This document shows positions 22,047 through 64,000 of a stretch of DNA of 64,000 nt, piece by piece (positions within the stretch are counted from its first letter, which is position 1; every line of letters starts with the position of its first letter). The notes beneath the pieces are model-generated. The model was not told the origin of the DNA. It ran no database searches and was given only the letters and a program-made list of their open reading frames with translations. The translations under genes were made by a program, and so were the position numbers. This DNA comes from Strongyloides papillosus (lineage: Eukaryota; Nematoda; Chromadorea; Rhabditida; Strongyloididae). Location of the stretch: NCBI GenBank assembly GCA_005656395.1, contig SRSI01000038.1:248001-312000 (forward strand). The letters run 5' to 3'.

Positions 22047-25000
22047 ATGAGCAAGGAGATACTGTTTTTGGAACTTAAAGCTATTCTATCGTGTGATACA
22101 TCAGGGATCTTGGTGGAAGACAGTGAGCTACAGGAGGTAGTTGACAATATAAGGGATATTGAGAAGCTGTCTGATAAGAAGAAGAGGTGTATTGCAGAGG
22201 AGATTCTAGAGAAGAAGGTGAAGGAGCTTAAGTTGGACAGTTCACCAGTTGAGAAAATAGAATTGGACGACAAGGAAAAGGAATCTCTTGTCAGGGTTGA
22301 GGATTCTTCTAGCGATATTGAAGAATCTTTTGGTGAGGAAAAAAGATCGCTTCTTCGTACAGAAGGATCAGTTGCTGAAATCAAAGAATCGTTGTTACAG
22401 GTTAAGAAAGTGTTATTAAGTAGAAGGAACTTACTTCTGAAGGAAAGCAATCGTTTATTGAGGGAAAAGAACTTAGCGTTAAAGAGAAAAAGAAGTTTGC
22501 TTCGGTTAAAGAAGAGGAGGAAGAATCTTCTGAAAGTTGACGAGGAAGAGAAGGTGCAGGAGAGTTTCTGCAAGTTAAAAATAGAGACAAGTATCGTAAC
22601 TGAAAAGAAAAAGAGAAACATGAGTCTTTTGAAAGATATAACGAAGTACGATTGCATGAATGGTTCACCCATCAAGGAACATTTAACGATCTTGGAGGAG
22701 ACTTTCATCCTGGAAGATATTGATGCTGATAGGAAGAAATGTTCATATTTGATGTTGACAGTTGATCAATCCTTGAGAGACTATATCCGTAGTCTATCGG
22801 ATGAGTTGAAGTCAGATTGGGTATCATTGACCGCGCATTTGGAGGAGAAGTATCCTGGTGAAATCAGTGTTGTTTCAGCGAAAGGAAAACTGCGTAACAT
22901 GAGGATCAATACTTCTTATCATGGGTTTAGAAATTCTGCTTTGGAGTTGGTGAAGACATACAGAATTGCTTATCCCAAGAGAGGAGATGATGAGATCTTG
23001 GAGAAATTACAAAAGTTGTGTGCCCATTCAGCACCGATCTGGAATATGCTGAACAAAGCTGAAAATAAGGACTTGATTCAAACGATTGCGAAAATTGAAG
23101 CTTATTTGGCTAGTGAATCTAAGAGGAATTCGATCTTGAAAGGAAGTACTGTTGGTGCTGGTAAAGCTAGATGTTTCAACTGTAAAGAAGAAGGACATAA
23201 AGCTGCACAATGTCAGAAGGCTGTCAAGTCTGAAGCCAACATTGAATGTTACAAGTGCAAGCAAAAAGGACATTATGCAAACAAGTGCACGAATGAAGTT
23301 AAATTGGAGTCTAAAGTCAATGCCGTAGTTACTAAAAATGGATCTTCAGTTAAAAAGAATTTATTGTACAGTGATGTTGTCGTTAATAAGGTTGTTAGTA
23401 ACGTTAGTAATACATGTACATCAAATGATATTTTGATTAAGTGTAATATTGCGTATAATGACATTAACGTTTTAGCATTGGTAGACACAGGAAGTGAAAT
23501 TAATATGATTACTCATGATGCTGCAGTAAGATGTGGACTTGCATTGGAACCGACTAATTTCCATATTAGAGGAATAGGTGGTGTTGATTGTGTTAATGCT
23601 GTAACTTCAATCAAATTGTTAGGTGAAGAGTTAGAAGTTTACGTTGGTAAGATTCCGGTTGCTGGTATTGATATTTTACTTGGTGTCAACGCAGTATTGA
23701 ATTTAGGATTTCACAGGCTTTTTGGATTGTCGGAGAGAGCTCGATTGACGTCTCCAGATGATGATCAACCTGTTTTGTTGAGTATTAGTGAAGTAATTGA
23801 GCATAGTCGTGAAACCAAAGTTGAAGGAACTATTGAATCGTCGAAGTCTTGTTATACCAATGATGAAATACTGGCAATGTTATTAGAACGTGATGAAAGA
23901 GTGATGGCTGCAATATCATTTAAGAAAAATGATATCGGTAGATTCAATGAAGAGGTAGATGTTATAGTGATTGACTTTATGAAAGCTAGTAAGGATTTTA
24001 TGCCGTATAAGTTTCCAGAAAAGATGCGTCAAGAAGGCGATAAGCTTATAAATGAATTGTTGTCTACAAATACTATTGTTCCTGGTGGAGCAAAGTTGTT
24101 GCATAATATCATTTGTGTAAGGAAGAAGACTGGTGATATGCGTTCTTGTGTAGATATGAGATATAGCAACAAGTACATGCATAAATGTCAATACCCAATA
24201 CCACGACTTGACCAATTTCTTTATAAGACAAGGGGTTACCGTTATTATTCCGTATTAGACCTGCCTGCTGCTTTTCATCAATTTTTGTTACATTCATCAC
24301 AACGAGATTTATTTGGTATTTACTATCGTGGAAAATGTTATCGTTATCAAACTTTACCACAAGGATGTAAGAATAGTCCAATGTTGATGCAAGAAAAGTT
24401 AAGTTCATTATTTGATGAAGATTTGATTTCATGGTACTATGATGATGGCATTATTTGTAGTTATGAGTTTGATGATCACATGGAAAAGTTGTTGAAAGTA
24501 TTGTTAAAGTTGGGTGAGGTAGGATTGAAGATTTCTCACGAAAAGTCGATTTATTGTTCTTCGGCTGTGGACTTCTTAGGTAATCGTTTGGAAGATGGAC
24601 TTGTTATTACTGAATCAGCTAAACGTACTGTAAATTCAATTCGTCCTCCTTCATCCGTTAGTGAAGTTCGTTCTCTGTTAGGAAATCTCGGTTTTTACTC
24701 AAAGTATGTTCGTAATTATTCTCAAATCTTGTTCCCGATTACACAGTTGTTGAAGAAGTCAGTTGATTTTGTCTGGAGTGAAGCATGTGATGCTGCTCTT
24801 GTTGAACTTAAAAGAATACTTTCCAGTGATGTTGTACTTGCTAGGCTTAGATTGGATCTTCCTCTGATTATTCAATCCGATTCTTGTGAACGTGGTTATG
24901 GAGTAGCTATGTTTCAGGATTTCCCAGGTGAAGGACGTCGACCAGTTTTGTTTTGGAGCATGAAGAGACCAAATAGAGTTAAGTATCGAAATAGTGTTTA

Positions 25001-26540
25001 TTTAGAAGGACATGCTGTGATATGTTTTGTTCGTAAACATTTTCATTTACTTTTGGGTATGGATATTTTTATTGAGAGTGATAACAAACCGTTGGTACAG
25101 GCAATGACAGGTGGAACATCTCATCCTCAACTTAGTGCATGGGCACAGGAGTTGTCTTTTCTTTCAATTACGTGGAGTTATATTTCTAAGAATGTTAACG
25201 ATGTTGCAGATATTCTCAGTCGAGTAGAAAAGGATGAGGAAGGTGATGATGAACCTGATGAAGCTTTAGAAATTTCTCCTTTTAGAGAGGGGGTGGATTT
25301 GGATAAGAAACATGTTTGTGCAATAACTGCTATCGAACTTAAGGACCACCAGAAACAATGGATTACTGATAATGGCACTGATGGACTGACTAAGAGAGTC
25401 AATAGTGATTATTGGGGGAAGGTAAATCCTCAAGGTAAATGGATCCCGTTGGCATCAGATGAATTGGTTGAAAAGGAAGCTTTGCTTGTTCATAGTTTTG
25501 GGCATTTCAATTGGCGTAAAGTTGCTGCAGTTTTGAAACATAAATTTTACAACCCGAAGTTAGAAAGTATTGTTGAAAGATGTATTAGGGCTTGTAAGAC
25601 ATGTCAACAATGTAATGTTAATGGTAAGAAAGTTAAAGTTTCAAATTGGTGTAGTTACATGGTTCCAAGAGAAAATTATGCTGCTGATATTTGTGGTCCA
25701 CGAGAAGGAAAGTATATTCTTCACATGGTTGACAGTGCTACGTTGTTTTGGATGGTTGAAGTTATTCCAAATGTTGAAAGTGATACAGTGATGATGGCTT
25801 CTCTTAAGTTATGTTGGAAATATGGGTTTCCCAATAGTTGGAGATCGGATAATGCTCCATACTGGAATAAGACTATGGAGAAACTTGGAGAATTTGGATG
25901 CGATGTAAGTACAGGGAATCCGTATCATCACAATGGTAATAGTGTAGCAGAGAATGCAATTGGTAATCTTCAGCATGTAATGAGGAAGATTTTGACGGAC
26001 CAAATTAATAGGAACAAGAAACCAATGGATTTAGAGGATGTTGTGGAATGGTCAGTTATATTCCATAACTCTATTGCTGAAGAAGGAGAAAGTCCTAGTG
26101 AACTATTCTTAGGTCACAAGCTCAAGTACCCGTCATATGTGGAGAAGCATTCTTACAGTGAAGAAGGCTCAGATGCTGCAAGAGACGTCGAATTGCTTCG
26201 TTTAGAAATGTTGAGCAAGTCTAGTGCCCAACGGATGATGAAAAAAATAGTAAGAGAAGAAAAAGAAATGAAAAAGAGTAAAGATTCTACTGTTATGAAT
26301 GAAGAGATGTATAAAATTGGAGATCTGGTCCTCACTTCTTCATGTTGGAAGAAACTTAAAGCTAAATGGGAAGGTCCATATGTCATCAAGAAGATTCATG
26401 GATCAACTGCTGTACTCGAGAGAGCTGTTAAAGCTGTTAATGGAAAGAAACGAGGTAGACCACCAAAGAATGTTATCTCAAGGAATCTCGTCCAGTTGAA
26501 GAAATTTAAGGATGGTGATGTTTTAAGGGGTGGTGAGTGA
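22047..26540 (+). CDS. Gag-Pol polyprotein of the recent Ty3-type element
   Basis: One 1497-residue frame encodes everything. The lysine/glutamate-rich N-terminal region is probably coiled-coil (about 1-185). A Gag core is followed by two CCHC knuckles (CFNCKEEGHKAAQC about 375, CYKCKQKGHYANKC about 400). Then come the protease (LVDTGSEINMI about 478), RT (YYDDGIICS about 796) and RNase H (QSDSCERGYGV about 941, IESDNKPLV about 1009). The integrase has a zinc site (HSFGHFN...CKTCQQC about 1148-1185) and the aspartates of ADICGP and WRSDNAP and the glutamate of SVAENAIG. An AT-hook motif (KKRGRPPK) lies about 30 residues from the end. Gag and Pol are fused without a frameshift. The stop (26538-26540) falls inside the 3' LTR. 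Confidence 0.95.
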   Translation: MSKEILFLELKAILSCDTSGILVEDSELQEVVDNIRDIEKLSDKKKRCIAEEILEKKVKELKLDSSPVEKIELDDKEKESLVRVEDSSSDIEESFGEEKRSLLRTEGSVAEIKESLLQVKKVLLSRRNLLLKESNRLLREKNLALKRKRSLLRLKKRRKNLLKVDEEEKVQESFCKLKIETSIVTEKKKRNMSLLKDITKYDCMNGSPIKEHLTILEETFILEDIDADRKKCSYLMLTVDQSLRDYIRSLSDELKSDWVSLTAHLEEKYPGEISVVSAKGKLRNMRINTSYHGFRNSALELVKTYRIAYPKRGDDEILEKLQKLCAHSAPIWNMLNKAENKDLIQTIAKIEAYLASESKRNSILKGSTVGAGKARCFNCKEEGHKAAQCQKAVKSEANIECYKCKQKGHYANKCTNEVKLESKVNAVVTKNGSSVKKNLLYSDVVVNKVVSNVSNTCTSNDILIKCNIAYNDINVLALVDTGSEINMITHDAAVRCGLALEPTNFHIRGIGGVDCVNAVTSIKLLGEELEVYVGKIPVAGIDILLGVNAVLNLGFHRLFGLSERARLTSPDDDQPVLLSISEVIEHSRETKVEGTIESSKSCYTNDEILAMLLERDERVMAAISFKKNDIGRFNEEVDVIVIDFMKASKDFMPYKFPEKMRQEGDKLINELLSTNTIVPGGAKLLHNIICVRKKTGDMRSCVDMRYSNKYMHKCQYPIPRLDQFLYKTRGYRYYSVLDLPAAFHQFLLHSSQRDLFGIYYRGKCYRYQTLPQGCKNSPMLMQEKLSSLFDEDLISWYYDDGIICSYEFDDHMEKLLKVLLKLGEVGLKISHEKSIYCSSAVDFLGNRLEDGLVITESAKRTVNSIRPPSSVSEVRSLLGNLGFYSKYVRNYSQILFPITQLLKKSVDFVWSEACDAALVELKRILSSDVVLARLRLDLPLIIQSDSCERGYGVAMFQDFPGEGRRPVLFWSMKRPNRVKYRNSVYLEGHAVICFVRKHFHLLLGMDIFIESDNKPLVQAMTGGTSHPQLSAWAQELSFLSITWSYISKNVNDVADILSRVEKDEEGDDEPDEALEISPFREGVDLDKKHVCAITAIELKDHQKQWITDNGTDGLTKRVNSDYWGKVNPQGKWIPLASDELVEKEALLVHSFGHFNWRKVAAVLKHKFYNPKLESIVERCIRACKTCQQCNVNGKKVKVSNWCSYMVPRENYAADICGPREGKYILHMVDSATLFWMVEVIPNVESDTVMMASLKLCWKYGFPNSWRSDNAPYWNKTMEKLGEFGCDVSTGNPYHHNGNSVAENAIGNLQHVMRKILTDQINRNKKPMDLEDVVEWSVIFHNSIAEEGESPSELFLGHKLKYPSYVEKHSYSEEGSDAARDVELLRLEMLSKSSAQRMMKKIVREEKEMKKSKDSTVMNEEMYKIGDLVLTSSCWKKLKAKWEGPYVIKKIHGSTAVLERAVKAVNGKKRGRPPKNVISRNLVQLKKFKDGDVLRGGE

Positions 26541-31400: not shown

Positions 31401-31558
31401 ATGTAGTTAATAGAGCAATATATTAAATTGTTTATACCAATTCAAAGGTATGATGAAAAGTCACTTAAATTGTTACTTGAAAATATTCAAATATACATTT
31501 TCATTTACCTTTTAGATAATAAATGAGATTCTTTTTGTTGGGTAGATTTTTTTTAACT

Positions 31559-31710
31559 TGAATGAAAATTTAAATATTTTAAATTTAAATGTTTTAAATA
31601 TATATTCAAATATATTATTATTTCACGATTATAAATAAGCATGTTTTCTCTTAATAAAATTAATTGTGCTTCACATTTATTTGTGTTTAATTAGCTTTAA
31701 TTTCTAAACA
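31559..31710 (+). repeat. 5' LTR (152 bp)
   Basis: Starts TGAATGAAAATTTAAAT, ends TTTCTAAACA and is identical to 35949-36100. TATAAATA at 31630 is a likely TATA box and AATAAA at 31653 a likely polyadenylation signal. Confidence 0.95.
31630..31637 (+). promoter_or_regulatory. Likely TATA box of the LTR promoter
   Basis: TATAAATA lies in the middle of the LTR, 16 bp before AATAAA. It is assigned by sequence and position only. Confidence 0.4.
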
Positions 31711-31712
31711 TT

Positions 31713-31728
31713 TGGCGATCCTGGCAGG
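31713..31728 (+). promoter_or_regulatory. Primer-binding site
   Basis: TGGCGATCCTGGCAGG starts 2 nt after the 5' LTR and ends directly against the gag ATG at 31729. Its first 13 bases equal the site at 8584-8572 of the short-LTR element, so both probably prime from the same tRNA. Confidence 0.8.
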
Positions 31729-33789
31729 ATGAAGGAAACTCCAACCTGCGAACAACTAGAAATGATGGCTGATAAGACCCATTTTTGTACAATGGTGAAG
31801 CAGAAAGAGATGATCTGGAAGGTGGCTTATCCAAATTCGACCCCTGCAGAACGTCTCTCTTGGATACTTTTACGTCAGTCAGAGGGAATTGTTAGCGGAT
31901 TCATGACTTACTTGGAGAATAAGGTGAAAGAACTCGGGGATGCTGATACGAACGATTTGGTTGAGTTCATGAACATGCGGGCCGAGACTAGGGAAAAGGC
32001 ATACGGGACAAAGGTTCTGGAGTTTTGGAATATGGAAAGGAAAAAAGGAGAGAACACGATGGATTTTGGTGCTCGTCTTCAAACATTGGCAAGACGCGTA
32101 GACAAGATAATTTGGGAAAAACTTGTCATTCAAAAATTATTGATAGAGATCGACGATTACACTTTATTCTTAATCAACTCAACTATTGATGAGACAACTG
32201 ATTTGGCAACTGTTTTGAAGAAGATACTGGATGCTGAAGATGTCACTCATGGGAGAGAGTTTAAGAAAGGAGAGACGAAGAAGAAGGAATTGAAATTAAC
32301 ATGTTGGTTTTGTAAGAAATCAGACCATAAAAAAGAGGAATGCAAGAAGTGGAAGGACGCCGGATCACCGGTCTATAATTTCACTACGAGAACTTGGGAG
32401 ACAGGTCAATTGAAAATTTGTAACAACGATCTTGCAGCTATGAGAGAAATCGAAATCTGTGGTAAGACAAAGGAAGTGTTTTTAGACAGTGGTTCAACAG
32501 AAAATTGGATGAGTCTCGAGAATGCTAAGAACATTGGTGTCGAACTTAAACCAACCAGTGGAGTTTGTGCTTGTATGGCTGATGGGAGTGCATTGAAAGC
32601 AATTGCAATGTTTGACTGTGAGGTTGATTTCAAGAATGGTAAAGGAATCCAAGTACTTCGTTTCTATGTGCCAGTTAAAGGTAATGATATTATCATTGGA
32701 TGGCGTGTTTTGAAGAACAACTGTGACCTGTTTGAAATCGGTAGTGATAATGATACTTCTGTTGAATCATCGTTAACGGCCGACCATTCCGAAAATGAGG
32801 TATTACAGGATTGCAAAGATGAAGGTCACGAGACATCGGTAATGGTTGAAAGAGAAGAAGTCCTGAAGTTCATAGAGCAATGCCAACAGAAGGTTGAAAG
32901 TATAGAAAAGAGAACACCTATTTCATTAGAATTGAGGGATGAACTTAGCATAGAAGACATCCAGTTGAAGAGAGATTACCGAAGAAAGGTGAAAAATATC
33001 TTCAGTGGTGGGTTACAGGCATATTTAGATAAAGAAGAAAGGTCGGGCATGATATCAAGAGTTTATGATATACCCAGAATTGTATCTCCAATCCATATCG
33101 TAAAAAAGAAAAATGCAGATGAACAGGCTGTTGATGATAAGATTCCTTGTGATTTCATGAGAGTATGCGTTGATTATAGTGAACTAAACCAATTCCTGGC
33201 TAAAAAGGAGGTGGACTTGATAAGATTGGAAAGTGTTATTGACATGGTTTCTGGCTCAGAGTATCTTAGTACCATGGACGTATCTGCAGCGTATAAAGCC
33301 TTACCACTGGATGAGCATTCCAAAGAGTTGACGTGTTTCTACACACCTTATGGGATATATAAGGCAGAAACTCTACCATTTGGCTTAGCAACGGCTCCAG
33401 CATTATTTGTAGCCGAGATCCGTAAGTCTTTAAAAATGATTAAAAGTACTAATTTTACCTTTTACATGGACGATTTCTTGTTCTATGGACCTGTAGCACA
33501 GCAGATTCAAGCGATAAAGGAAGTCACTGAAGCTTTGATCAAGAGAGGATGGAGCTGGAATCTTGAAAAATGCGAGATATTAAAGCCACAGGTTCATTTT
33601 ATTGGTTACCTGATTAGCGGTACTGAATGGGAGATACCTGATGAAAAGATCAAGAAATTGTTAGACATGACACCACCAAAAAATGCTAAAGAGCTTGCAA
33701 GTTTGAGAGGGAAATTATTATACTTTTCACGGTTGATCCCAGAGTTTGGTGCAATCACTTCTGTATGGGATGGCTCCAAATTCAGGTGA
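31729..33789 (+). CDS. Gag, protease and RT part of the dual-RNase H element
   Basis: The frame opens at the ATG directly after the primer site. A Gag region (about 1-185) is followed by one CCHC knuckle (CWFCKKSDHKKEEC, about residue 192), the protease active site (LDSGSTENWM, about 251), a linker, and RT with YMDDFLFYG at about residue 578. It stops at TGA 33787-33789 just after the RT, between the RT thumb and the RNase H. The downstream frame is the same frame, and related elements have Trp at this position, so the stop interrupts one polyprotein. Read-through is conceivable, but I see no known stimulatory signal. Confidence 0.9.
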   Translation: MKETPTCEQLEMMADKTHFCTMVKQKEMIWKVAYPNSTPAERLSWILLRQSEGIVSGFMTYLENKVKELGDADTNDLVEFMNMRAETREKAYGTKVLEFWNMERKKGENTMDFGARLQTLARRVDKIIWEKLVIQKLLIEIDDYTLFLINSTIDETTDLATVLKKILDAEDVTHGREFKKGETKKKELKLTCWFCKKSDHKKEECKKWKDAGSPVYNFTTRTWETGQLKICNNDLAAMREIEICGKTKEVFLDSGSTENWMSLENAKNIGVELKPTSGVCACMADGSALKAIAMFDCEVDFKNGKGIQVLRFYVPVKGNDIIIGWRVLKNNCDLFEIGSDNDTSVESSLTADHSENEVLQDCKDEGHETSVMVEREEVLKFIEQCQQKVESIEKRTPISLELRDELSIEDIQLKRDYRRKVKNIFSGGLQAYLDKEERSGMISRVYDIPRIVSPIHIVKKKNADEQAVDDKIPCDFMRVCVDYSELNQFLAKKEVDLIRLESVIDMVSGSEYLSTMDVSAAYKALPLDEHSKELTCFYTPYGIYKAETLPFGLATAPALFVAEIRKSLKMIKSTNFTFYMDDFLFYGPVAQQIQAIKEVTEALIKRGWSWNLEKCEILKPQVHFIGYLISGTEWEIPDEKIKKLLDMTPPKNAKELASLRGKLLYFSRLIPEFGAITSVWDGSKFR

Positions 33790-35955
33790 GAAGAAGATGA
33801 GCAAAAGGCTTTTGAGACCATTATGAGCATATTGAAAAGGAATCCCAAGATCACGACGATACCGGAAGGTGCACAAGTAGTTGTTGTGGTTGTGAATCAG
33901 CATAAAAATTCGATAAGTTCTGCTCTTTACTGGTTTACTGATAAATCTTATGGTGTAGCATGTTGGTGTTCAAGAAAATCGACGGCAACGGAACGAAATT
34001 ACTCTGTATTGGACCGGTGGACTGTAGCGATTTACGAAATGATGAACCAGCCACGTTTGAAACACTGTAAGGTTTTCATACATTGTGATGGCTTAGAGCA
34101 AAGCAGGAGAATCCGGCCACCGTACGATGAAGAGATGTTGGGTCATCCAATGTCTAAGAGAGTATGCGGCATGCTCTTTACGTTATCATTGATGAACTTG
34201 GAGCCAATAAATCTGCCAAAAGCAAAAGACGATGTTGTAGCATTGAGTTTAGGGGTACTAGAGCAGTGTTATTCTATAAAAAAGGATGAAAAAGAAAATA
34301 TTGGACACTTGAAACTTACAACTGTCGAGAATGAGTTGATACAGGAAGCACGTGCTGATCTAGATTATATGAACATGTTTAAGGGAGTTTTTGATGGAGT
34401 CTACAGACACCTAGAGAAGTACCAGCTTTCGTTGACTGGAGAGAGGAATGTTATGGCATTGAATGGTAAATTGATAGTTCCAGTAGGTTCAGGTAAACGT
34501 ATAGTTGCTAAAATACATAAGGATTATCATGAAGGAACGAGAAACCTTACCAATCGGATCAACACCAACTTCATCATCCACGGGCTTACAAAATTGATAA
34601 AAGAAGTAATTGCTGAGTGTAAGATTTGTCAAATGTTCCGGAAGAATGGACCATGTAAGACGTTAATTTGGACACCGGCTGTTGAACCAAGAGAGAGAGG
34701 ACATATGGACTTTTTCTTCTTCTCAGGTAAGACCATTTTTCTACTTACGGATTCTTTCTCGGCCTACCCTTTCGCTAAGGTTATTAAGCGAAAATCGGAT
34801 TTCTTGGAAGTACTGAAGGAGATTGTTGCTTTATTCGGTGATTTTGAGTTGTTGGTATCCGACAATGAACCGGTATTTCAGAGTGAAGAAGTTGCAGGAT
34901 GGCTTGAAGAGAGAGGAACGTTGCATTTTTTTGTGCCAACATATTCACCAAGATCCAACGGTCTTGCAGAAGGGATGGTTAATATTCTGAAAAATAAGAT
35001 GAAAAAAGCACAGGAGGAGATGAATTTAAATGTTGAAGAATCACTTACCTGGGCATTAATAAGTGTAAGAACAGTTTCAGATTACAAAGGAATGTCGCGC
35101 ATAGACAAGTTTGTGGGAAAACGTTCCATGGGGAAGAAATGGTTTCAAGACATTCGTTTCGAAAGTGTGTCTCAACCGGTTTACTTTAAAGTGTCACCCA
35201 ATCAAACATGGACTGAAGGCCAACTGATATGGACCATTGGTCAACGTATTAAGGGAGTACTGGCAGATGGAATAGTCCACATGCTTCCGGCGGAGCGAGT
35301 TCATGGGAGGAAAGAAGATTTAAAAGAGGTTGATGATGATTCTGCAGTTAATGATGAACAGGTTGTCAGTAGTAATCAAGAAATTACCCAATTGTTGAAA
35401 AATGGAGGTTTCAAGTACCCAGCGGGAGTATTTTTTACAGATGGTTCGACTAAACAGGAGAATGGTTACGGGGTTGTAGGTCTCCTCCTTCCTGAAGAAG
35501 GAAAGGTTAAGGTAAAGGTATACGCTCAGAGAGGTATCAAACATGGATCATGTGGTCCGTCAGCAAACAGGCTTGAGATAATGGCTGTTAAAGTAGCACT
35601 GGAGATAGCACAGGACATGAATTTACAACAAGTCTACATTTTTTCAGATTCACGAAACCTTACCGGAGCTTATAGTGAGGGATGGATTGACAACTGGAGA
35701 GACAATGGCTTTTCAAGGTTGTCCAACAGTTCTCTTTACAAAGCCGTTGATGACCTGGTCCAGAAGATCCCCCAAGTTCATATCAAAAGAGTAGCTGCGC
35801 ACAACGGGGTGTTTCTTAATGAATGTGCTGATGAGTTGGCTAAAGGTGGTGATCCTGATGAAATCACTAATAAAGTCAACAACTGGTTGAAGTCTAAATT
35901 ATGTGAAACTTCTCCGGAAGAAGAAGTCGAGGAAGAAAAAGATCCGGATGAATGA
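33790..35955 (+). CDS. Degenerate RNase H, integrase and second RNase H of the same element
   Basis: Reading continues in phase after the TGA; the first ATG is 33823. The RT-linked RNase H fold (ALYWFTDK...SRKSTATERNYSVLD) lacks its first aspartate (VVVVVNQHKN) and has Trp where NYS..EKE has the catalytic Glu, so it is probably inactive. The integrase follows with HKDYHEG...CKICQM and the acidic residues of LLTDSFSAYPF, LLVSDNEPVF and NGLAEGMVN. A complete RNase H comes last: FFTDGSTKQ (Asp at 35440), RLEIMAVKVAL (Glu at 35575), IFSDSRN (Asp at 35647), then AAHNGVFLNECADELAK with the His and final Asp. The stop lies at bases 5-7 of the 3' LTR. Confidence 0.9.
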   Translation, partial: EEDEQKAFETIMSILKRNPKITTIPEGAQVVVVVVNQHKNSISSALYWFTDKSYGVACWCSRKSTATERNYSVLDRWTVAIYEMMNQPRLKHCKVFIHCDGLEQSRRIRPPYDEEMLGHPMSKRVCGMLFTLSLMNLEPINLPKAKDDVVALSLGVLEQCYSIKKDEKENIGHLKLTTVENELIQEARADLDYMNMFKGVFDGVYRHLEKYQLSLTGERNVMALNGKLIVPVGSGKRIVAKIHKDYHEGTRNLTNRINTNFIIHGLTKLIKEVIAECKICQMFRKNGPCKTLIWTPAVEPRERGHMDFFFFSGKTIFLLTDSFSAYPFAKVIKRKSDFLEVLKEIVALFGDFELLVSDNEPVFQSEEVAGWLEERGTLHFFVPTYSPRSNGLAEGMVNILKNKMKKAQEEMNLNVEESLTWALISVRTVSDYKGMSRIDKFVGKRSMGKKWFQDIRFESVSQPVYFKVSPNQTWTEGQLIWTIGQRIKGVLADGIVHMLPAERVHGRKEDLKEVDDDSAVNDEQVVSSNQEITQLLKNGGFKYPAGVFFTDGSTKQENGYGVVGLLLPEEGKVKVKVYAQRGIKHGSCGPSANRLEIMAVKVALEIAQDMNLQQVYIFSDSRNLTGAYSEGWIDNWRDNGFSRLSNSSLYKAVDDLVQKIPQVHIKRVAAHNGVFLNECADELAKGGDPDEITNKVNNWLKSKLCETSPEEEVEEEKDPDE

Positions 35956-36100
35956 AAATTTAAATATTTTAAATTTAAATGTTTTAAATATATATTCAAA
36001 TATATTATTATTTCACGATTATAAATAAGCATGTTTTCTCTTAATAAAATTAATTGTGCTTCACATTTATTTGTGTTTAATTAGCTTTAATTTCTAAACA
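35949..36100 (+). repeat. 3' LTR (152 bp)
   Basis: Identical by eye to 31559-31710 and followed by the TAACT duplication. The end of pol overlaps its first seven bases. Confidence 0.95.
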
Positions 36101-36105
36101 TAACT

Positions 36106-37479: not shown

Positions 37480-37566
37480 CCAACCATAGCTCAGTTGGTA
37501 GAGCGGAGGACTGTAGATTTAGTTGCTGATATCCTTAGGTCACTGGTTCGAATCCGGTTGGTTGGA
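37480..37566 (+). tRNA. tRNA-Tyr (GTA) with a 14-nt intron
   Basis: Acceptor CCAACCA/TGGTTGG, D arm AGCTCAGTTGGTAGAGC, anticodon region GGAGGACTGTAG...ATCCTTAGG, T arm ACTGG-TTCGAAT-CCGGT, discriminator A. A 14-nt intron (37517-37530, ATTTAGTTGCTGAT) sits one base 3' of the anticodon, the usual place in nuclear tRNA-Tyr, leaving a 73-nt mature tRNA. It needs the tRNA-splicing endonuclease. It reads UAU/UAC codons. Confidence 0.96.
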
Positions 37567-39975: not shown

Positions 39976-42900
39976 CTTTTGACTAGCTAGTGAGAGGTGG
40001 TTTTTATATTTCTCTCTTATTTTTGAAAGAATACAATAAATAAAACATCTATTATTTACTGTAGTTGAGAATCCTCCGATACTAAGCTGATTGTGGTGAT
40101 TTCTAACAGCTAAGGAGCTAATCGTAGATGTTATATAGGTGAAAACTACATTAGTGATGTAATATATTTGATTCGAGATTGAAAATTGATACTATTTTTT
40201 CCGGGAAAAATTTTGATGACAATTGTTATTTGTAAATAATGATGACTTTAAACTTAGCAACAATCAATGTAAGAGGTATTAAGGCTTATCCAATAAGAAA
40301 TAATTTATGAAGGAACTGTGTCACAACGAGATTGACATTACTATAATTACCGAAACCAAAGTGAAAGAAGGTATTTCGGAGAAATGTGGGAATTCTCTAA
40401 TTTCATGTGGTAAAAGTAGTGGAAAATGTATTGGTGGTGTGGGGTTTGCAATTTTCAATGAAAACATCATAAAGCATATTAAAGTTATTGAACATATTAA
40501 CTTTAGATTAAGCTACATGATAATAAATATTGATAAAAGGAAATCTCTAGGTATTATTGCAGTCTATGCGCCAACAAATTGCTATGATGTTATAGATAAA
40601 GATGAATTTTATCTATAATTATACTCATTATATCCTAATATAAGACAAATGTCAACAGTAACAATCTTGGAAGGTGTTTTTTATGGAACAATTGATAGTC
40701 AAATAATACCAAAAATAAAGGGAATGTACTCATATGATGAACTAAACGATAACGGAGAGCGATTGATAAATTTCTGCACTCAAAATAGAATAAGCATAGT
40801 CAACTCATTTTTTAAGAAACGTTGGTGGAAAAAGTTTTCATGGATAAAACCCCAAAGCATTGAAGACAATATTAAGGGTAGACTCTGTGTTAAACAACTA
40901 GACTACTTTTGATGCAACATGAAAAGGATTTTTACAGATGTAGAAACATGGAGCCATAAGAAATTTGATGCGACGGTTAGTGATCACAGATTAGTAAAAG
41001 CGACAATTAAATTTCCAAAGAAACTCTGTGATTACATTAAAAAATCTAGATGTCTTCAGAAAAAAGTACTACATTACAACATTAAATATGAAAAATCACT
41101 GAACGAAGTAGGTGAAAAAGAATTGATAATTCCATCAAATGAGTTTAAAAATGTTGAAAAAGAATATTCAAAGTTTATCAAGGAAATTAAAAGAGTAACA
41201 AAGTTAGTTACAGTAGAGAAACAAATTCCTAGTACAAGATACTCAGAACATGTTAAGTCCTTATTTAGTAATAGGAGAAAATTACTAAATTCTATTTCGT
41301 ACAGTGATAACAATGAAGATAAAAAAGAAAGTAAAGTCAAGATTTTAATAGAAATTCGTATGATTAATAAATTAATAAGACAAACAATTAAGAATAAATG
41401 GAATTCACTCGTACATGATAGAATCAAAGAGGCCCTAGAAAATAACAAGAAAATTAAAAGTGTATTTAGAGTCTTGAAAGAAAGAAAGGAAGCACTACCA
41501 GTGAAAGTGGAAAATATCAATAAGTATATGAATGATCTATATCTAATTAAATCCGAAGATATAAAAAGACTGAAAAAATTAGAAATTACAAGATTTATTA
41601 ATAATGATATTACATTACCTTTTCTAGAATCAGAAACAAGAGCTGCTATATATAGCTGTGGTAAAAATAAGATGAAAGGTGTTGATGGACTAAACGCTTA
41701 TGATCTAAGATGTCTGGGTAACAAGGCTATAAGATATTTCACTCTAATCTGCAACATGTGCTTAAAACAGGTTAAACATCCACCTGAGTGGAAGACTGTT
41801 AAATGTCTTTTTTTGTATAAGAAGAAAGGGAATAAAGATTGCTTATCATCATACAGACCTCTTAGTATATGTAGTCATGGGTACAAAATATATGCTAAAA
41901 TGATTTTAAACAGAATTCAAAAGAAAATATTAAATGAAATATCAGAAACACAATTTGAGTTCAGACCAAATTACAGTTGTAGTGATGCAATAATATGTTT
42001 GGAAAACATATTTCATACTCACCATACATATAAATTAAATTTACTAACAGCGTTACTAGATTTTCGAAAAGCGTATGATTTGGTATATAAAGAATATATT
42101 TGGTATAATCTTAATAAAATCGGTATAGAAAAATCTTTAATACTGATTTTAAAAGATTTAAATGTAAACATCAAATGTGTAATAAATCCAGAATATGGAA
42201 GTGATATTACTATTTATCCATCAAGAGGTATTCGGCAGGGTTGTTCAATCAGTTCGCTATTATACAACTTCAATTTAGAAATGGCTATGAGAAATGCCTT
42301 TATGAATAATAATATGGTATTCAAGTATGGTGTGAACATAACAGGCAGTAAAGTACCTAACTTATGCTTCGCAGATGATACATGTTTACTGGCCAATAGT
42401 TGGAATGATTTGAGCTTAATGGTGGACAAATTTATTAGAGCCTGTCAACCTGTGGGCATGAAATTAAATATGAATAAATGCAAAATTCTAATGAGTAAGG
42501 AGCTTTCAATTCAATATGAAAAGAATAAACATGTCCCACTGAATTTGGCAGATATGCAAATTTCAAAAGAAGAAGAATATTTAGGAAAAATGGCGTCTAT
42601 TACGGAAAAAAGATGCTTTTTAAAACAAGTTAGGAATAGAGCTTGGAAAGCTTTCTACAGCGTTAGCAAATATCTCAACATTTCACTAAGGGCTAGGAAA
42701 TTATTATTTGTAACTAGAATAAGATCAAGCATGTGTTATGCAGCTCAATCATGGACTACAACACAAGCTGAAAGGAATAATCTTATATCTGTAGAACGTA
42801 GTATAATTCGCAGATTGAAATTAATACCGGAGGATAAATGGTTGATAAAAGAGGATGATAATACCTTTAAGAAATTGTCAAATGAAGATATGTATAAGGA

Positions 42901-43215
42901 AATTGGTATATGTAATTTAAATCGTCATTTAGCCAAACTTAAGATTAAATTTATATACAAAAAAATTGACAAAAATGGTATAGTGCAAAGATGTCTATGT
43001 TGGTATCCTCATGGCACTAAGAAACGTATTGGCAGACCACGTGATTCTTACTTTGATTGCTTTAAAAGATCTAAATGTGTTGGTAAAAATAGTAGCAATC
43101 TAACTATTACTCATTTAATTAGACACAAGTATAATTTCATTCTTAATAACATTGTTCCCTATATTTATATATGATTAGAACGTATTTAAAATAAAATAAA
43201 AATAAAAATAAAATA
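39976..43215 (+). mobile_element. LINE A (AP-endonuclease type, RTE-like), inactive copy
   Basis: The 5' region from about 39980 (CTAGCTAGTGAGAGGTGG...) resembles that of LINE C (about 56210), so both share a leader. A single endonuclease-RT coding region follows, with no separate Gag-like ORF1. The element ends in an AAAAT simple-repeat tail (about 43185-43213) right after the stop. One protein, a short 3' UTR and a microsatellite tail suit the RTE group; the clade assignment is tentative. Confidence 0.8.
40239..43174 (+). pseudogene. LINE A endonuclease-reverse transcriptase
   Basis: Starts MMTLNLATINVRGIK at 40239, the normal beginning of an AP endonuclease. One base is misplaced near 40305; the frame from 40307 then carries TIITETKVKEG, VYAPTN and DATVSDHRLVKA (endonuclease motifs). 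Stops at TAA 40616-40618 and TGA 40910-40912 interrupt it. From 40919 a 751-residue open stretch holds RT with YRPLSICSHGYKI, LLDFRKAYD, RQGCSISSLL and the FADDTCLLA catalytic box. The C-terminal GRPRDSYFDCFKR motif is shared with the other LINEs here. The RT part looks intact; the endonuclease part is broken. Confidence 0.85.
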
Positions 43216-44948: not shown

Positions 44949-47900
44949 TTATTTTATTTGGCAACATAATAAAATCTTACAATATTACAATAATAATAAT
45001 GAAAAGATTTATTAATTGTTAGTGTTGCTATACGGTATTCCCCGCTAATTACTATGAGATGTTGCAAAGTGCCATTTTATGATCCTTGTAGAACCTAATA
45101 CAGCAGCTCTGGAGAGTTGGTGCCATAATCTTCCTCCTTTACCAAAATGACTTTCAAAATTTTCTTTTACTGATTTTAAAATTTCACCCGTAGAACTAAT
45201 AGCTAAACATATAAAAACTGTAGACATTTTCTCTTGGTTTGCTAATACTTCACAGTAATTTTTGTCAGGATTAACATCTTTATAATTCATATCAACTTTG
45301 TCTACTGAGTTTACACAATATCTTACATTTTTAAGTTCAATTTGATTCTGGTAATTTGACCAGTGAGGAATACTTATTTCAATTACATAAATTTTCCTTT
45401 TTATCTTATCCATCCAGACAATATCAGGTAGATGATGGTGTAATTTCTCATCTACGGGCCATGGAGTATCTATTGTATATTTACAGTTATTATTTTCTCC
45501 TATTTTTGCATACTCAACTTTATATTTCTTAGCAAGAAACCTCCCCACAATATGCATAACTCTATTATGTCGTCTTACTTGTAGCGATGACATGTATGTC
45601 GGACAATAATTTAAGATATGTCTTGGAGTTTCTAAAGGGTCTCCACAAGTCCTACATGATTTATCTTTTGATTTGTTTGCTGGATGCCCTTTTAACATCA
45701 ATTGGTCCTCTTGTGCAGCTAATAAGATTTTTGTATTTTTTATCGACATCCCTGAGTTTATGTATAAATGCAATACTTCATCATTTTTACTGGTTTCTTC
45801 TAACCATTTAGGGTAATACATACTTTTAGAGAAATGATCCCACAATTCTTCTTGGTACTTTTCATCAATCAACTTTTTTAAGTATTTTTGAAACTCTTTA
45901 TGAGTGTGGAATTTTAACTTCACATCATCTAATTTTAGAGTAATTGGGATTTCTGCATCTATCTCATGATTTACTTTACAAAATTTTTCAAGATCTATTT
46001 CTATTTTAACTTCATTGTTTGTGAATCTTTGAATTATTGATCTTAAATCATCAATTTTATTTCTACGTTGTTTTTTATATAATGCTAATTGAGTAAAAGT
46101 AAAAGATGCTAATTCCCTCTTCATTAAACAATATACTATAGAACATGCAGTATTTTTCATACATTCTACTCTTAAGTTTTTTATTCCCAACCCACCTTTC
46201 TTTACATCCATAAAAAGTCTTCCAGTGCAATTATTACTTTGTAATAATTTCTTATTACGAAAAATCTTCACTATTTCACTGTCAATACTTCCTATGTAAG
46301 CAAAAGTTGTCATTAATTTACCATTTTGACCAAGGTGTGTTGTGATATATGAAGCTGCTGCAGGGATTATGAGATTATGTAATGTAATAAGATTACCCAC
46401 ATTAAGATCGTAGTCCCATATAGCTTTAGTTTTATCAATCAATTTTTTCTCCAATGATTGTAGAGTTTCAGTAGAATCATCAAAAAATCTCTGTTTGATT
46501 CCAAGATATTTGTATGGATCTTGCGAATCATCTATAAAAGGTATATTTGTTTCATAACATTCAATAGATGATTTGTTTGTTGTAATACCACACTTTTTCT
46601 CATTTAATTGTAGTCCAATTTCTCCAGCTGCACTTCTAATCACTGATAATAACGTATTAAGTTGAGACATGCTTGTAGCAAAGCATTTTAAATCATCCAT
46701 AAAACATAAATAATTTGTAAAGTTTTCTAATTCTTTTACTTTTAAGTTACTTCTACCTATCTTCAATTCTATTTTTGGTTGTTTATCTAACATGTATGTA
46801 ATATATGATGACACCAACACAAATATTGTTGGACTTATAGAATCTCCTTGCAAGATTCCAGACCTTATGCTTACTTTTTTACTTAATTTATTATTAACAA
46901 CATATCTCACTTTCCATCTTTTTTGTGCATTTAACAGAAAATATTTAATTTCTTCCGCTATTGGTAGTGAACTTATCATTGAACTTATGGAATGCGACGT
47001 AATTGAATCATAAGCTTTTTGGTAATCTACCCACGCACAATATAATCTAGAACCCTTAGTTTCATAATCTTTAGTTATAGTAGCATCTATATATTTTGCC
47101 ATACATGTACCCCACCATTGTTTTTTATTTGCAAACTGAAATTTTGGTATCAGGTGATAGCAATATCTCATTACTTGAGCATTTATAGTTGAAGTTGTAA
47201 TTTTATAAAAAACATTGAGAAGGGTAATAGGACGGTAATTTTTTATTTCCTCAGGGTTATTTGATTTATATAATAGCACAGCTTTGCCTTCATATTCTAC
47301 ATCAGGTAAGGTTATTTTCTTTGTAATTATTGTGTATATCATTTTTATCGTCCACTCACGTACACTCTTTAGATTTTTATAAAATGCCCCCGCAATTCCA
47401 TCTATCCCTGGTGTTTTCCAAGGTGATATTGTATCAATTGCAAAATTAATATCTTCTATTAATGTATTACTATCTACCTCTACTTGATTGTCGATTAGGA
47501 AATTTTTTTTCAAAAATTTTTCATATCCATCACATTTAACCGTTTTTTCAGAGTAAAGTTCAGTATAATATTTGTGTACCTCATCTATATTGAGTGGTGA
47601 GTCAAATTTGGTAGTATTTCCTGATAGTCTATCTATTAATTTAAGTGAGGGTGATTTACTAAATGCCAACCTTAATATTCTTCTATGTTCATTTACTTTT
47701 AATCTGTTGACTTCCTTTTGTTTTTCCTCTTTCATCCAGGTCAAAAAAGTGATGTATTCTTTGATCTTATAGTTTGATCTCTTAGGGTATCTTAATCGTA
47801 ATTGTGCAAGCAATTGCGACGCTTTTGCACATGGTTTAGTTTTAACATTCTTTAATAATTCAATTTCACCAGACAATTTAACTATTATTTTTTTTAATCT

Positions 47901-48735
47901 TCTAATACGTTTTTTTTCTTTTCTTTCGAAATCTATTGTAGTAATTTGTTTTATTGTTTCTGCTGCTGCTCTTATTAACCTTTTCCCTTTTAGGAAATCA
48001 TCTATAGTTTCACTGAGTGGCATCAGATCTTCTAGTATACTATCTACAATAGCCCATGCTGGTGCGGTAAATTTGTTTATTACCATTTTTCTAGGAGGTT
48101 TAACGTTCATTAGATTTTTATCATTGTACTTTTTTAAAAGTATATCTTTGATACTATTCTCATCATAACTACGTTTAATTTTACCTAGAAAAGTTTCATA
48201 GTAGTATTTTTCTTTATCATTATAACCTATCTTGTTTTTATTTCTATTTACTCCCATATTTGTTGGTGAAATATGTATACTGTCAATTTTTACATTCTCA
48301 TCACTTTTGATGTCATCATTATCATTCATCATGTTGGCATATGATATGTCATTGATATGATTTTCCTCACTTATCCTCACAGGTATTAGCGAAACTTTTC
48401 TTAGTTCAGCTTCTTTTTCTGCTAATTTCTTTATTCTTTTCCTATTGTATTCGTTATTGGTAAAGTTACAGTTATATTTTGAATTTAGTTCATTAACAAC
48501 ATCTATCCATTTAAATTTAGATCCATCATGATAGCGTTGCGCAACATCGAAAAAAATGGATTTGTCTTGGTTAGTTGGTTTAGTTTTATCGAAGATAGTA
48601 CATTCTGGTGATTTCTTTGCCATTTCAGACATTTTCTTTTCCTCAGAAGTCCACTTCAACAGTTGCTTTAGGTAGAAGAATATTTAGTGACAAAATATTA
48701 CTAAAACGCCTCACCCTAGCTCGCAAAAGTAAAGA
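44949..48735 (-). mobile_element. RLE-type (R2/R4-like) LINE inserted in a tRNA-Glu gene
   Basis: The 3787-bp element is flanked on both sides by the perfect 17-bp duplication GTATGGTCTAGTGGTTA. Its 3' end is at 44949 (short 96-bp 3' UTR after the stop, no poly-A). Its 5' end is at 48735 (about 100-bp leader). The only ORF is open throughout. The right-hand duplication continues straight into the rest of a tRNA-Glu sequence, so the target was inside that gene's A box. A perfect duplication plus an open frame indicates a recent, possibly competent insertion. Confidence 0.9.
45045..48635 (-). CDS. Reverse transcriptase with C-terminal restriction-like endonuclease
   Basis: The first ATG is at 48635-48633, giving about 1196 residues; the frame is open a little further upstream. 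The N-terminal ~90 residues include a SANT/Myb-like helical segment (KFKWIDVVNELNSKYNCNF) that could bind DNA; I see no C2H2 fingers. RT motifs follow: IDGIAGAFYKNL, NYRPITLLNVFYK, AWVDYQKAYDS, LQGDSISPTIF and the catalytic CFMDDLKCF (about residue 650). Near the end come the zinc knuckle CRTCGDPLETPRHILNYC and the endonuclease core PDIVWMDK...YVIEISIPHWSNY. This is the layout of R2/R4/NeSL-type elements that insert at fixed sites. Confidence 0.92.
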   Translation of the reverse strand, partial: KMSEMAKKSPECTIFDKTKPTNQDKSIFFDVAQRYHDGSKFKWIDVVNELNSKYNCNFTNNEYNRKRIKKLAEKEAELRKVSLIPVRISEENHINDISYANMMNDNDDIKSDENVKIDSIHISPTNMGVNRNKNKIGYNDKEKYYYETFLGKIKRSYDENSIKDILLKKYNDKNLMNVKPPRKMVINKFTAPAWAIVDSILEDLMPLSETIDDFLKGKRLIRAAAETIKQITTIDFERKEKKRIRRLKKIIVKLSGEIELLKNVKTKPCAKASQLLAQLRLRYPKRSNYKIKEYITFLTWMKEEKQKEVNRLKVNEHRRILRLAFSKSPSLKLIDRLSGNTTKFDSPLNIDEVHKYYTELYSEKTVKCDGYEKFLKKNFLIDNQVEVDSNTLIEDINFAIDTISPWKTPGIDGIAGAFYKNLKSVREWTIKMIYTIITKKITLPDVEYEGKAVLLYKSNNPEEIKNYRPITLLNVFYKITTSTINAQVMRYCYHLIPKFQFANKKQWWGTCMAKYIDATITKDYETKGSRLYCAWVDYQKAYDSITSHSISSMISSLPIAEEIKYFLLNAQKRWKVRYVVNNKLSKKVSIRSGILQGDSISPTIFVLVSSYITYMLDKQPKIELKIGRSNLKVKELENFTNYLCFMDDLKCFATSMSQLNTLLSVIRSAAGEIGLQLNEKKCGITTNKSSIECYETNIPFIDDSQDPYKYLGIKQRFFDDSTETLQSLEKKLIDKTKAIWDYDLNVGNLITLHNLIIPAAASYITTHLGQNGKLMTTFAYIGSIDSEIVKIFRNKKLLQSNNCTGRLFMDVKKGGLGIKNLRVECMKNTACSIVYCLMKRELASFTFTQLALYKKQRRNKIDDLRSIIQRFTNNEVKIEIDLEKFCKVNHEIDAEIPITLKLDDVKLKFHTHKEFQKYLKKLIDEKYQEELWDHFSKSMYYPKWLEETSKNDEVLHLYINSGMSIKNTKILLAAQEDQLMLKGHPANKSKDKSCRTCGDPLETPRHILNYCPTYMSSLQVRRHNRVMHIVGRFLAKKYKVEYAKIGENNNCKYTIDTPWPVDEKLHHHLPDIVWMDKIKRKIYVIEISIPHWSNYQNQIELKNVRYCVNSVDKVDMNYKDVNPDKNYCEVLANQEKMSTVFICLAISSTGEILKSVKENFESHFGKGGRLWHQLSRAAVLGSTRIIKWHFATSHSN

Positions 48736-52399: not shown

Positions 52400-55300
52400 A
52401 GACTTTCCTAAAATCGTTTTAGAGAGAGGGTGTTTTTTAATATTATTGTAATCATTTTTACAAATATTATACTAAAACAGTCTGAAAGTCCACTACACAA
52501 GGAAGTTCTTGAAAAATGGCAAGGAACAGAGTGGCCAAAGATATTACTATAAAGCTGGGATATTTAAATGCCAGATTTTTAACTTCAAAAGGGAAAATCT
52601 TTGATTTAATTACTGAAATAAAAAACAATGACATTGACATTATATTTATAGCAGAGACTAAATCAAAAATATCATCGAATTTTGATGTAGAGCATGGTAA
52701 ATTATGGATAGGTGAAGGAAAAATGAACAAAATAAATGAAAAATCCACTGGAGTTAGTGGAGGAATGGCTATATACGTCAAAAATAATATTAATATCTAT
52801 AAATTGAAAATTTATAATAATAGAATTGCAGTTGTTCAACAATTAAATAACAAAGTACTTACAACGTATATAGGTATATATGCACCAACAGACGATAACA
52901 ATGATGAAACAAAAAACAAATTTTTTGCAGAAGTAAATGAAGTTATAGAATTAATAATTAATGAAGATAAAAAGAATAAAGATATTATTGTTAGAAAGCC
53001 TGTTATATTAGGTGATTTCAATGGTTATATAGGAAGAAATAAAATGAAGAACATACACGGAGGATATTATATGTGTTCTAAAGATAATGATAATGGTATA
53101 AGATTATTAGAATTGGTAATGAAATTAAACATTAGTGTAATTAATACATACTATAAAAGAAGAAATAGTAGTAGATTTACATGGTCAAATACTTCAAAAC
53201 ACAAAGATCCGAAATTGATTATATTGTAGGAGAAAGAAAATTAATAACCAACATCAGAATTTTAACATTTTCTCAATTCTTCGTAAATTCAGATCATAGA
53301 GCAATATCATGTAAATATCAAATTCCAAAGGTAATATTACGAAGAAGAAAGATGAAATTACATGGTACAGTTGATATAGATGTAGCGAATAAGATTGATT
53401 GGAACTTTACATGTAATTCTACAACACAAAAAGCTGTGGATGAAGAATACATGCAATTAATTCAAAAAATAAAAAGAACATTGAAACCAAAAGACAAAAA
53501 TGAAAAATGTCTTTTTTCAGATAAAATAAAAGAAATGTTAAAGATAAGAAAAGAACTGAAAAGTGGAAATAACTTCATTGAATTCACATAATATGCAAAG
53601 CATGTTAGAAAAACTCTAGAAAATGAAATTAGAGAAAGGAAAAGTAAAAATATCATTGACTACATAGAAAATAATTGTAGAGGCTTCAAAAAAGCTTTCA
53701 AAAATGCTATGTATCTTAGAAAAGGAATGATAAAACTCACAGATTATTTCACGAAAGAAATTGATACAAATGAAAAAGTAATCTGCAATTTTTATACAGA
53801 ACTATATTAAGATGATATTGAAAGTATCAGAAATGATAAGCATAAAATATCAGATCATAGTGAATTCAAACCATTTCTTGAAAGTGAAATCGATTACGTT
53901 GTAGCAAAGTCAAAAAATGAAAAAATGACAGGAACTAATGGTATTTCAAATGAAATGATAAAAAGTCTGTATAAAAATCAAAAGTTTAAAGTAGCTTTAT
54001 TGAAAAGACTTAACTTTTATTTTATGAATAAAATAATACCAAAATGTTGGGGCACTTCAATTTTACTACTGTTGTCAAAGAAGAATAATCTCAATAGTAT
54101 CAGAAATTACAGACCGCTATCTATATTGTCACATTTATTCAAACTCTTTACGGCTTTCATAAATGAAAGACTTAAAAGATATATCAAGTATGAAGTTCAT
54201 GATTATCAAACAGGATTTAGAAATGATATGTCAACAGTAGATGCTATATATACTTTGAAACAAATCATGTTACATACCAAAGAATTCAACATGAGAAAAA
54301 GAGTATTCATATTTCTCGATTTCATGAAATGCTTTGATATGATAAAAAGAGAAATGTTATACCAGAGTATGTATGATTTGAATATAGATGGACACATTAT
54401 TTCTACAGTAGAAACGATACAAAAAGAGACAAAATTTGTAGATATTGATAACAAATACAACATACCTATTCAACGAGGTGTTGGTCAAGGTGATAGCATG
54501 TCACCATCATTATTCTTAATTATTATGGAACATATAGTAAGAGAATTTGCAAGTAAATTGAGAAAAGAAATAATTAAATGTTTTCAAATGAATGGTAATG
54601 ATACAGGAGTTATTGCTTTTGCAAATGATACATGTTTAATTGGTGAATCAGAAGAAGATGCACAAAAAATGTTAGTGTTATTTGAAATAATTGCCAAGAA
54701 ACATGGATTAGTACTGCATCCTATGAAAACTGAATTTATGTGTCTAGATGAAGTTAAGATAAAATCTCCAGATTGTACAAAAATTAAACAAGTTCAACAG
54801 TTCACATATCTTGGAGCTCAATTTAGTTTTTCTAATCAAGAATATAAAGAAGTATTAGTAAGGAAGAAAAAAATGTGATCTGCATATCATTTATATAAGA
54901 ATAAATGGAAAAGACTGAAAGATAAAGATAAAAGAAGACTAACAGTACAAATATTATTTTCAATAGCTACATATGGTGCTCAAGCTTGGCAACTATTGAA
55001 AAATACTCCAAAACAATTACAAGGTACTATAAACCATATATGGAAATGTTTAAATAATAATGACATTAATACCTCAAAATTACCATCAGTAGAAGATAAG
55101 ATACTGAAATTACAACTAAGGTTTATGGGCGATCAAATTCGGAAAAAAGATGGACTAGCCAAAAGAATGGTAGAAGGAATATGGATGTATAAAAACAAAC
55201 CATTAGTAGGAAAAAAGATTAGTTGGAAGACCTCAGAAGCAGTTAGCTGAGTGGTTCAAAAACATTAAAATTAAAAATGACGTAAACAAAAGAAAGAATT

Positions 55301-59200: not shown

Positions 59201-59404
59201 TCTCTAGCCTTGAACCTACTGTGGTATTATCCCTATGGATATAAAAGAAAAGTTTGCAGACCTAGAGAAAGATATCTTGATAATATTAAAAAACATAACT
59301 TATTAAAATTTTTTGTCAATTCTGTTAAATTAGATAGAACAGATTTTATTTGTAACATTGTACCCTCACTTATTAAGAATAGTACGTAAATAAATAAATA
59401 AAAA
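56205..59404 (+). mobile_element. LINE C (AP-endonuclease type, RTE-like), inactive copy
   Basis: The leader (CCCGCTAGCGAGTGGTGC...) resembles LINE A's. The coding region is 56441-59389. The element ends in an AAAT tail (about 59387-59404) that abuts a mariner fragment, so it inserted into mariner sequence. Several frame breaks make it inactive. Confidence 0.8.
56441..59389 (+). pseudogene. LINE C endonuclease-reverse transcriptase
   Basis: The N-terminal endonuclease (KVGTLNTRGGL, ITFVDETKNN) changes frame at about 56645 and again at about 56775. It then reads open for 659 codons with [17 protein letters not shown] and LSDNRLKIA (the usual SDH is SDN). RT motifs are [47 protein letters not shown] and the catalytic SYADDTTLI (about 58619). 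A shift near 58752 and a TAA near 58937 break the C-terminal part, which resumes with ALYEIACLDRKF and CRPRERYLDNIKK. Confidence 0.82.
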
Positions 59405-63980: not shown

Positions 63981-64000
63981 AACAAGATTGTTCTTTGGGA

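What the first reader, a model, noticed from the sequence alone, without database searches (positions are those of the whole stretch)
33790..35955. LTR element with an inactivated RT-linked RNase H and a second complete RNase H after the integrase
Seen: the RNase H fold directly after RT has Asn for the first catalytic Asp and Trp for the catalytic Glu, while a complete D-E-D-H-D RNase H (FFTDGSTKQ, RLEIMA, IFSDSRN, AHNG...ADELAK) ends the same frame. Known: vertebrate retroviruses have a degenerate RNase H (connection domain) plus a newly acquired one, and plant Tat and some oomycete elements carry an additional archaeal-type RNase H. Inference: this is an independent case of the same replacement, with the new enzyme placed C-terminal to the integrase in an animal element. 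The order RT-dead RNH-IN-RNH is unusual; I cannot say it is undescribed.
Basis: partly seen in the sequence, partly recalled or inferred. Interest (0 to 1): 0.85.

Follow-up and report, generated by a model that had tools for sequence, protein, structure and literature searches.

The report
Retrotransposons with relocated RNase H enzyme
In a parasitic nematode, a diverse group of LTR retrotransposons has lost the active site of the RNase H next to its reverse transcriptase and carries a complete RNase H at the very end of the polyprotein, after the integrase, a swap known from retroviruses and plant elements but here in an unfamiliar position.

Summary
Window 31559-36100 is a Ty3/gypsy LTR element (identical 152-bp LTRs, TAACT duplication, tRNA-Arg primer site) in a nematode close to Strongyloides papillosus. 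After the reverse transcriptase lies an RNase H-fold domain with Asn, Trp and no terminal motif where active relatives have Asp, Glu and Asp. After the integrase the same frame ends with a complete type-I RNase H. It is no chance fusion: two other copies are open throughout, and of 30 RNase_H loci read in this genome 29 are C-terminal ends of element-type frames (7 of them short) and one is host RNase H1. Integrase upstream was confirmed in 16 families. Across 17 families the new enzyme keeps D-E-D-D in all; the old domain has lost its first Asp in 9 of 9 readable families, while 16 of 16 relatives without the extra enzyme keep it. The old domain still models as a retroviral-type connection fold. 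Best reading: RNase H was replaced and the old domain became a tether, convergent with retroviruses, Tat, Chronos and Archon, but in the order RT-tether-IN-RNH, which I did not find in print. Activity, and single or multiple gain, are not shown.

The parts
31554..31558 (.). target-site duplication TAACT (5' copy)
31559..31710 (+). 5' LTR, 152 bp, TG...CA, identical to the 3' LTR
31713..31730 (+). primer binding site, 18 nt complementary to the CCA-ended 3' end of tRNA-Arg(ACG)
31729..33789 (+). first part of the gag-pol frame (gag, zinc knuckle, protease, RT), ending at an in-frame TGA in this copy
32302..32343 (+). CX2CX4HX4C zinc knuckle of gag
   Evidence: read by eye from the translation
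32449..32718 (+). aspartic protease (weak match to gag-asp_proteas, under its cut-off; DSG motif)
33226..33609 (+). reverse transcriptase core (RVT_1), YMDD
33793..34239 (+). RT-linked RNase H fold without a complete active site (tether); Asn 33895, Trp 34018, Asp 34087, no terminal D.LSR
34492..34644 (+). integrase H2C2 zinc domain
34684..34950 (+). integrase core (rve)
   Evidence: D, D, E invariant
35428..35847 (+). C-terminal RNase H (PF00075), D 35440, E 35575, D 35647, H 35800, D 35830
35917..35948 (+). purine-rich stretch before the 3' LTR, also coding for the acidic C-terminal tail
35949..36100 (+). 3' LTR, 152 bp; the stop codon of the frame (35953-35955) lies in it
36101..36105 (.). 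target-site duplication TAACT (3' copy)

Best explanation
This is a recently inserted, now interrupted copy of a Ty3/gypsy LTR retrotransposon from a diverse lineage in Strongyloides in which RNase H catalysis has moved. SHOWN by sequence: the RT-linked RNase H keeps its fold but not its full active site; a complete type-I RNase H follows the integrase at the end of the one gag-pol frame, in many diverged families. INFERRED: the polyprotein is packaged in the virus-like particle and cut by its protease; the old domain acts as a tether or connection holding the RNA:DNA hybrid; the C-terminal enzyme, free or still joined to the integrase, removes the RNA template and the primers, in trans or through RT-IN contact. 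INFERRED: an HI-type RNase H was gained in an ancestor and redundancy then let the old active site decay.
Against: No activity was measured. The window family still has Asp at the third acid position (Asn in P0002) and 5 of 9 families keep the Glu, so decay is incomplete. In the L029 family the three pairs give dN/dS 0.54, 0.76 and 2.84 on 12-16 differences: no constraint on its RNase H is visible there (two of those three copies are in short frames). dS is saturated in L047/L048 and L048/L056. The C-terminal RNH model from one sequence was poor (pLDDT 49) and not used. One clade for all carriers is neither shown nor rejected on RT (p-AU 0.405).
Confidence: 0.8

Rival explanations
1. The RT-linked domain still cuts RNA with a reduced metal site, and the C-terminal RNase H is an auxiliary enzyme (for example for primer removal or for clearing RNA near integration).
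For: The window family keeps the third acid and 5 of 9 families keep the Glu; the fold persists.
Against: The first Asp and the D.LSR motif are lost in 9 of 9 families, while 16 of 16 and 15 of 16 relatives without the extra enzyme keep them. That loss of key acids abolishes RNase H activity is general knowledge (recalled).
Confidence: 0.08
2. The C-terminal RNase H was gained several times, or swapped between element lineages, rather than once.
For: RT tree: two supported carrier groups plus two long branches (L029, L035), not joined. The RNH tree puts L064 (the RNase H of L023) beside the window family (90/89, not starred), whereas RT puts L023 in the other group (100/99) and the integrase tree rejects it beside the window family (p-AU 0.007). 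In the integrase tree L026 lies beside the window family (85/89), unlike in RT.
Against: Same position after the integrase in every family where this could be seen; all element RNHs fall on one side of four cellular RNHs (76/83, weak); on RNH the RT-defined grouping is not rejected (p-AU 0.451) nor on integrase (0.196); on RT one clade is not rejected.
Confidence: 0.35
3. The lineage descends from the Odin/retrovirus branch, and its second RNase H was later moved from behind the tether to behind the integrase.
For: Tether profile matches foamy virus slightly better than Ty3 (115 against 108 bits); the new RNase H is His-type like that of retroviruses.
Against: RT profile: Ty3 150 bits, CaMV 128, foamy 121, MLV 91, HIV about 70; no room for env, as the pol stop lies in the 3' LTR. 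No retroviral or Odin row was in my trees.
Confidence: 0.07
4. A chance fusion or a captured host gene in one broken copy.
For: This copy has an in-frame stop.
Against: Two other copies are open throughout; 29 of 30 RNase_H loci read are C-terminal ends of element-type frames; 16 families have integrase upstream; the host RNase H1 is a separate locus and groups with the other cellular enzymes.
Confidence: 0.01

Closest known systems
Tat LTR retrotransposons of land plants, structures #1 to #5 (PMC10508981; introduction, first of two parts of the results, and the tether section read; figures not held)
   Same: Ty3/gypsy; extra RNase H; degraded native RNase H wherever the extra one stands.
   Different: The extra enzyme is archaeal-type and, as the text describes the five structures, stands next to the native one, before RT, or in a separate frame; none is described with it after the integrase.
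Chronos and Archon of oomycetes (PMC5348765; first three of five parts read)
   Same: Ty3/gypsy; second RNase H with complete catalytic set; native one degraded.
   Different: Archaeal-type enzyme next to the native one; Chronos has a chromodomain after the integrase.
Odin elements of sea anemones and retroviruses (PMC9040795; abstract and passages read)
   Same: Animal hosts; second RNase H, of the Fungi/Metazoa type according to PMC10508981; tether from the old RNase H; Odin also lacks env.
   Different: Second RNase H follows the tether, before the integrase.
Ty3 of yeast (solved RT 4ol8)
   Same: Closest solved RT and same fold of the RT-linked domain.
   Different: Ty3 has one RNase H, active, and nothing of this kind after the integrase (recalled).

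Membership tests
Ty3/gypsy (Metaviridae) LTR retrotransposon | LTRs with TG...CA and short target duplication | tested here: met
   152-bp LTRs, TAACT/TAACT
Ty3/gypsy (Metaviridae) LTR retrotransposon | order PR-RT-RNH-IN and Ty3-like RT | tested here: met
   RT profile best to Ty3
Tat / Chronos / Archon | extra RNase H of archaeal type (Arg at the His position) | tested here: not met
   His in 16 of 17 families; profile best to bacterial HI (98 bits) and RNase H1 (88 bits)
Tat / Chronos / Archon | extra RNase H next to the native one, before RT, or in a separate frame | tested here: not met
   after the integrase in the same frame
Retrovirus / Odin dual RNase H | tether followed by active RNase H, then integrase | tested here: not met
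   integrase lies between the two
Retrovirus / Odin dual RNase H | native RNase H degraded to a tether with the fold kept | tested here: met
Retrovirus / Odin dual RNase H | RT groups with Odin and retroviruses | tested here: inconclusive
   PDB profile ranking favours Ty3; no tree with those rows
Retrovirus | env gene after pol | tested here: not met
   the pol stop (35953-35955) lies inside the 3' LTR
Type-I (HI-like) RNase H | D-E-D-H-D catalytic set and PF00075 match | tested here: met

The most novel reading that the evidence does not exclude
The RNase H works as an integrase-linked enzyme rather than as part of RT, and with it the rules of plus-strand priming changed: in 5 of 8 families whose LTR ends I read, the 20 nt before the 3' LTR hold no purine run longer than 4 nt, but pyrimidine-rich, often C-rich, sequence instead of a polypurine tract. 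This lineage would then be a natural test of whether a retroelement can uncouple RNase H from RT.
Probability: 0.2. Interest if true: 0.8.

Novelty: new variant of a known kind. Interest (0 to 1): 0.66.

Why it matters
Replacement of the RT-linked RNase H is shared by retroviruses, Odin, Tat, Chronos and Archon and is discussed as a stage on the way to retroviruses (PMC5348765, PMC9040795). A further case, in nematodes, with the new enzyme beyond the integrase, shows that loss of the old active site does not need the new one beside it, as plant Tat also suggests (PMC10508981), and makes the tether idea testable: how does an RNase H at the far end of the polyprotein reach the hybrid?

Tried and rejected
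Single-sequence model of the C-terminal RNase H: pLDDT 49, not used. Protein search with the C-terminal RNase H alone: 51 candidates, none at E 0.001. Protein search with the 8-family profile: 56 hits, of which only P0001-P0003 list PF00075 among their precomputed domains (P0001 and P0003 Strongyloides papillosus, P0002 unnamed); only the 7995 candidates sharing most words were scored, so absence elsewhere is weakly tested. Ty3-like targeting of tRNA genes: the window copy ends about 0.37 kb before a tRNA-Ala, but of 12 other element loci scanned only 2 have a tRNA gene in the 7-8 kb read; not supported. SSU rRNA search to check the host: not completed; the host name rests. Conventional RT-linked RNase H matches (best 150 listed of 420-430 candidates): reading the tables by eye I saw none on the same strand within about 5 kb upstream of the 55 RNase_H places; this was not computed, and weaker matches were not listed. 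Papers: nine searches bear on the question (open-licence library only); in no listing, abstract, passage or section that I saw was an RNase H after the integrase of an LTR element described. A tenth was on the polypurine tract. Seen as passages only: PMC8775202, PMC5718144, PMC3248453, PMC6338049, PMC9203780, PMC10676810.

Full report
WHAT IS THERE. The finding's span, 33790-35955, is the second half of an LTR retrotransposon at 31559-36100. Two identical 152-bp LTRs (TGAATG...AAACA) bound it, with a TAACT duplication on either side. Eighteen bases after the 5' LTR are complementary to the CCA-ended 3' end of the host's tRNA-Arg(ACG); ARAGORN recognised that gene in four of the eight short stretches read around matches to the site. 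The frame runs gag with a zinc knuckle (by eye), a weakly matched protease, RT (YMDD), an RNase H-like domain, the integrase zinc and core domains, and a PF00075 RNase H (E 1.2e-18). Its stop codon lies inside the 3' LTR. In this copy an in-frame TGA at 33787-33789 cuts the frame in two. Two other copies, 99.2% and 99.6% identical to it, are open over 1415 and 1414 codons; intact copies thus exist.

HOST. The window is part of a 58.2-Mb assembly. The closest protein, 97% identical over residues 690-1415 of the C1 copy, is named Strongyloides papillosus.

NOT CHANCE. PF00075 has 55 places over its cut-off in the genome. Thirty were delivered as loci: one is host RNase H1 (94 bits to solved RNase H1) and 29 are the C-terminal end of a frame with element-type sequence. 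Of these 29, 22 lie in frames of 392 codons or more and 7 in short ones (L045, L050, L052, L059, L060, L061, L063), of which five belong to families seen in long frames and L060/L061 do not. With Pfam I confirmed integrase upstream of RNase_H in the same frame for the window, for 7 of 7 uninterrupted full-length relatives scanned, for L035, and for 9 of 9 further frames. Counting L046 and L049 with the families of L029 and L047, that is 16 families. Their RNase H domains are 18-30% identical to the window's. The other three Ty3/gypsy elements of the window have the RT-linked RNase H (32-78 bits) and no PF00075 match.

THE NEW ENZYME. In 17 families (the 16 plus L060) D, E, D and D are invariant and His is present in 16. 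The profile is closest to RNase HI chains (98 bits; E. coli 1g15 96), then RNase H1 (88), foamy virus RT (76-77) and p80 RTs of MLV type (45-50) (some organism labels recalled). His there marks the Fungi/Metazoa subtype, Arg the archaeal subtype of Tat, Chronos and Archon (PMC5348765). Codon comparison of this domain: of 14 pairs, one was skipped, two had no synonymous change and one was saturated; the other ten gave 0.06, 0.14, 0.15, 0.19, 0.20, 0.27, 0.41, and in the L029 family 0.54, 0.76 and 2.84. L023/L024 gave 0.14. So most families look constrained; the L029 family does not.

ORIGIN. The RT profile of 8 families ranks Ty3 first (150 bits), then CaMV (128), foamy virus (121), MLV (91) and HIV (about 70). 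In an RT tree of 47 rows carriers form two supported groups and two long branches; one clade is not rejected (p-AU 0.405) and not shown. In the RNase H tree elements and four cellular enzymes separate weakly (76/83), so the donor is unknown. L023 hints at domain exchange: its integrase is rejected beside the window family (p-AU 0.007), its RNase H leans there without firm support.

MECHANISM. Shown: a decayed active site next to RT and a conserved one after the integrase. Inferred: the C-terminal enzyme does the RNA removal of reverse transcription inside the particle, as a free domain or joined to the integrase; the old domain remains as a tether. The variable linker between integrase and RNase H would allow either.

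KNOWN AND NEW. Dual RNase H with a decayed native domain is known in retroviruses and Odin (PMC9040795, abstract and passages), Tat (PMC10508981, several sections; five structures, none described with RNase H after the integrase) and Chronos and Archon (PMC5348765, parts 1-3 of 5). Nine searches of the open-licence library showed me no RNase H after the integrase of an LTR element; subscription papers and Repbase were not searched. I therefore call it a new variant of a known kind.

SIDE RESULTS. L024 is an in-frame deletion derivative: residues 1-426 (gag and protease) match L023 1-428 (85%) and 429-852 match L023 1058-1481 (92%), so RT, tether and most of the integrase core are gone while the integrase C-terminal part and RNase H stay; identical 161-bp direct repeats flank it. 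A second copy with the same junction lies at C28:318054 (95%). In 5 of 8 families (L026, L028, L030/L036, L031, L032) the 20 nt before the 3' LTR show no purine run over 4 nt; the window family, L023 and L029 have runs of 14, 9 and 9.

Noticed in passing
L024 (G000:C8:1951700-1958700) and G000:C28:318054: Non-autonomous in-frame derivative keeping gag, protease, integrase C-terminal part and RNase H but no RT, with identical 161-bp repeats in L024; two places share the junction.
   Followed up: partly
L026, L028, L030, L031, L032, just before the 3' LTR: No polypurine tract at its usual place; pyrimidine-rich, often C-rich sequence instead.
   Followed up: partly
window 22047-26540: Ty3/gypsy element with one open frame of 1497 codons, repeats of about 220 bp 99.5% identical, ordinary RT-linked RNase H, no PF00075.
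   Followed up: partly
window 60198-63998 (-) and 4964-8535 (-): Two further Ty3/gypsy elements without a PF00075 RNase H in the frames scanned.
   Followed up: partly
window 40307-43174, 45045-48659 (-), 52516-54878, 56775-59389: Frames that look by eye like non-LTR reverse transcriptases; none of this kind was recognised among the 30 PF00075 loci read.
   Followed up: no
window 37484-37566: Looks by eye like a tRNA-Tyr gene with an intron; not reported by ARAGORN with its bacterial setting, which lists only Ala and Glu.
   Followed up: no
L023 / L064 and L026: RNase H, integrase and RT point to different nearest families, a possible domain exchange, not firmly supported.
   Followed up: partly
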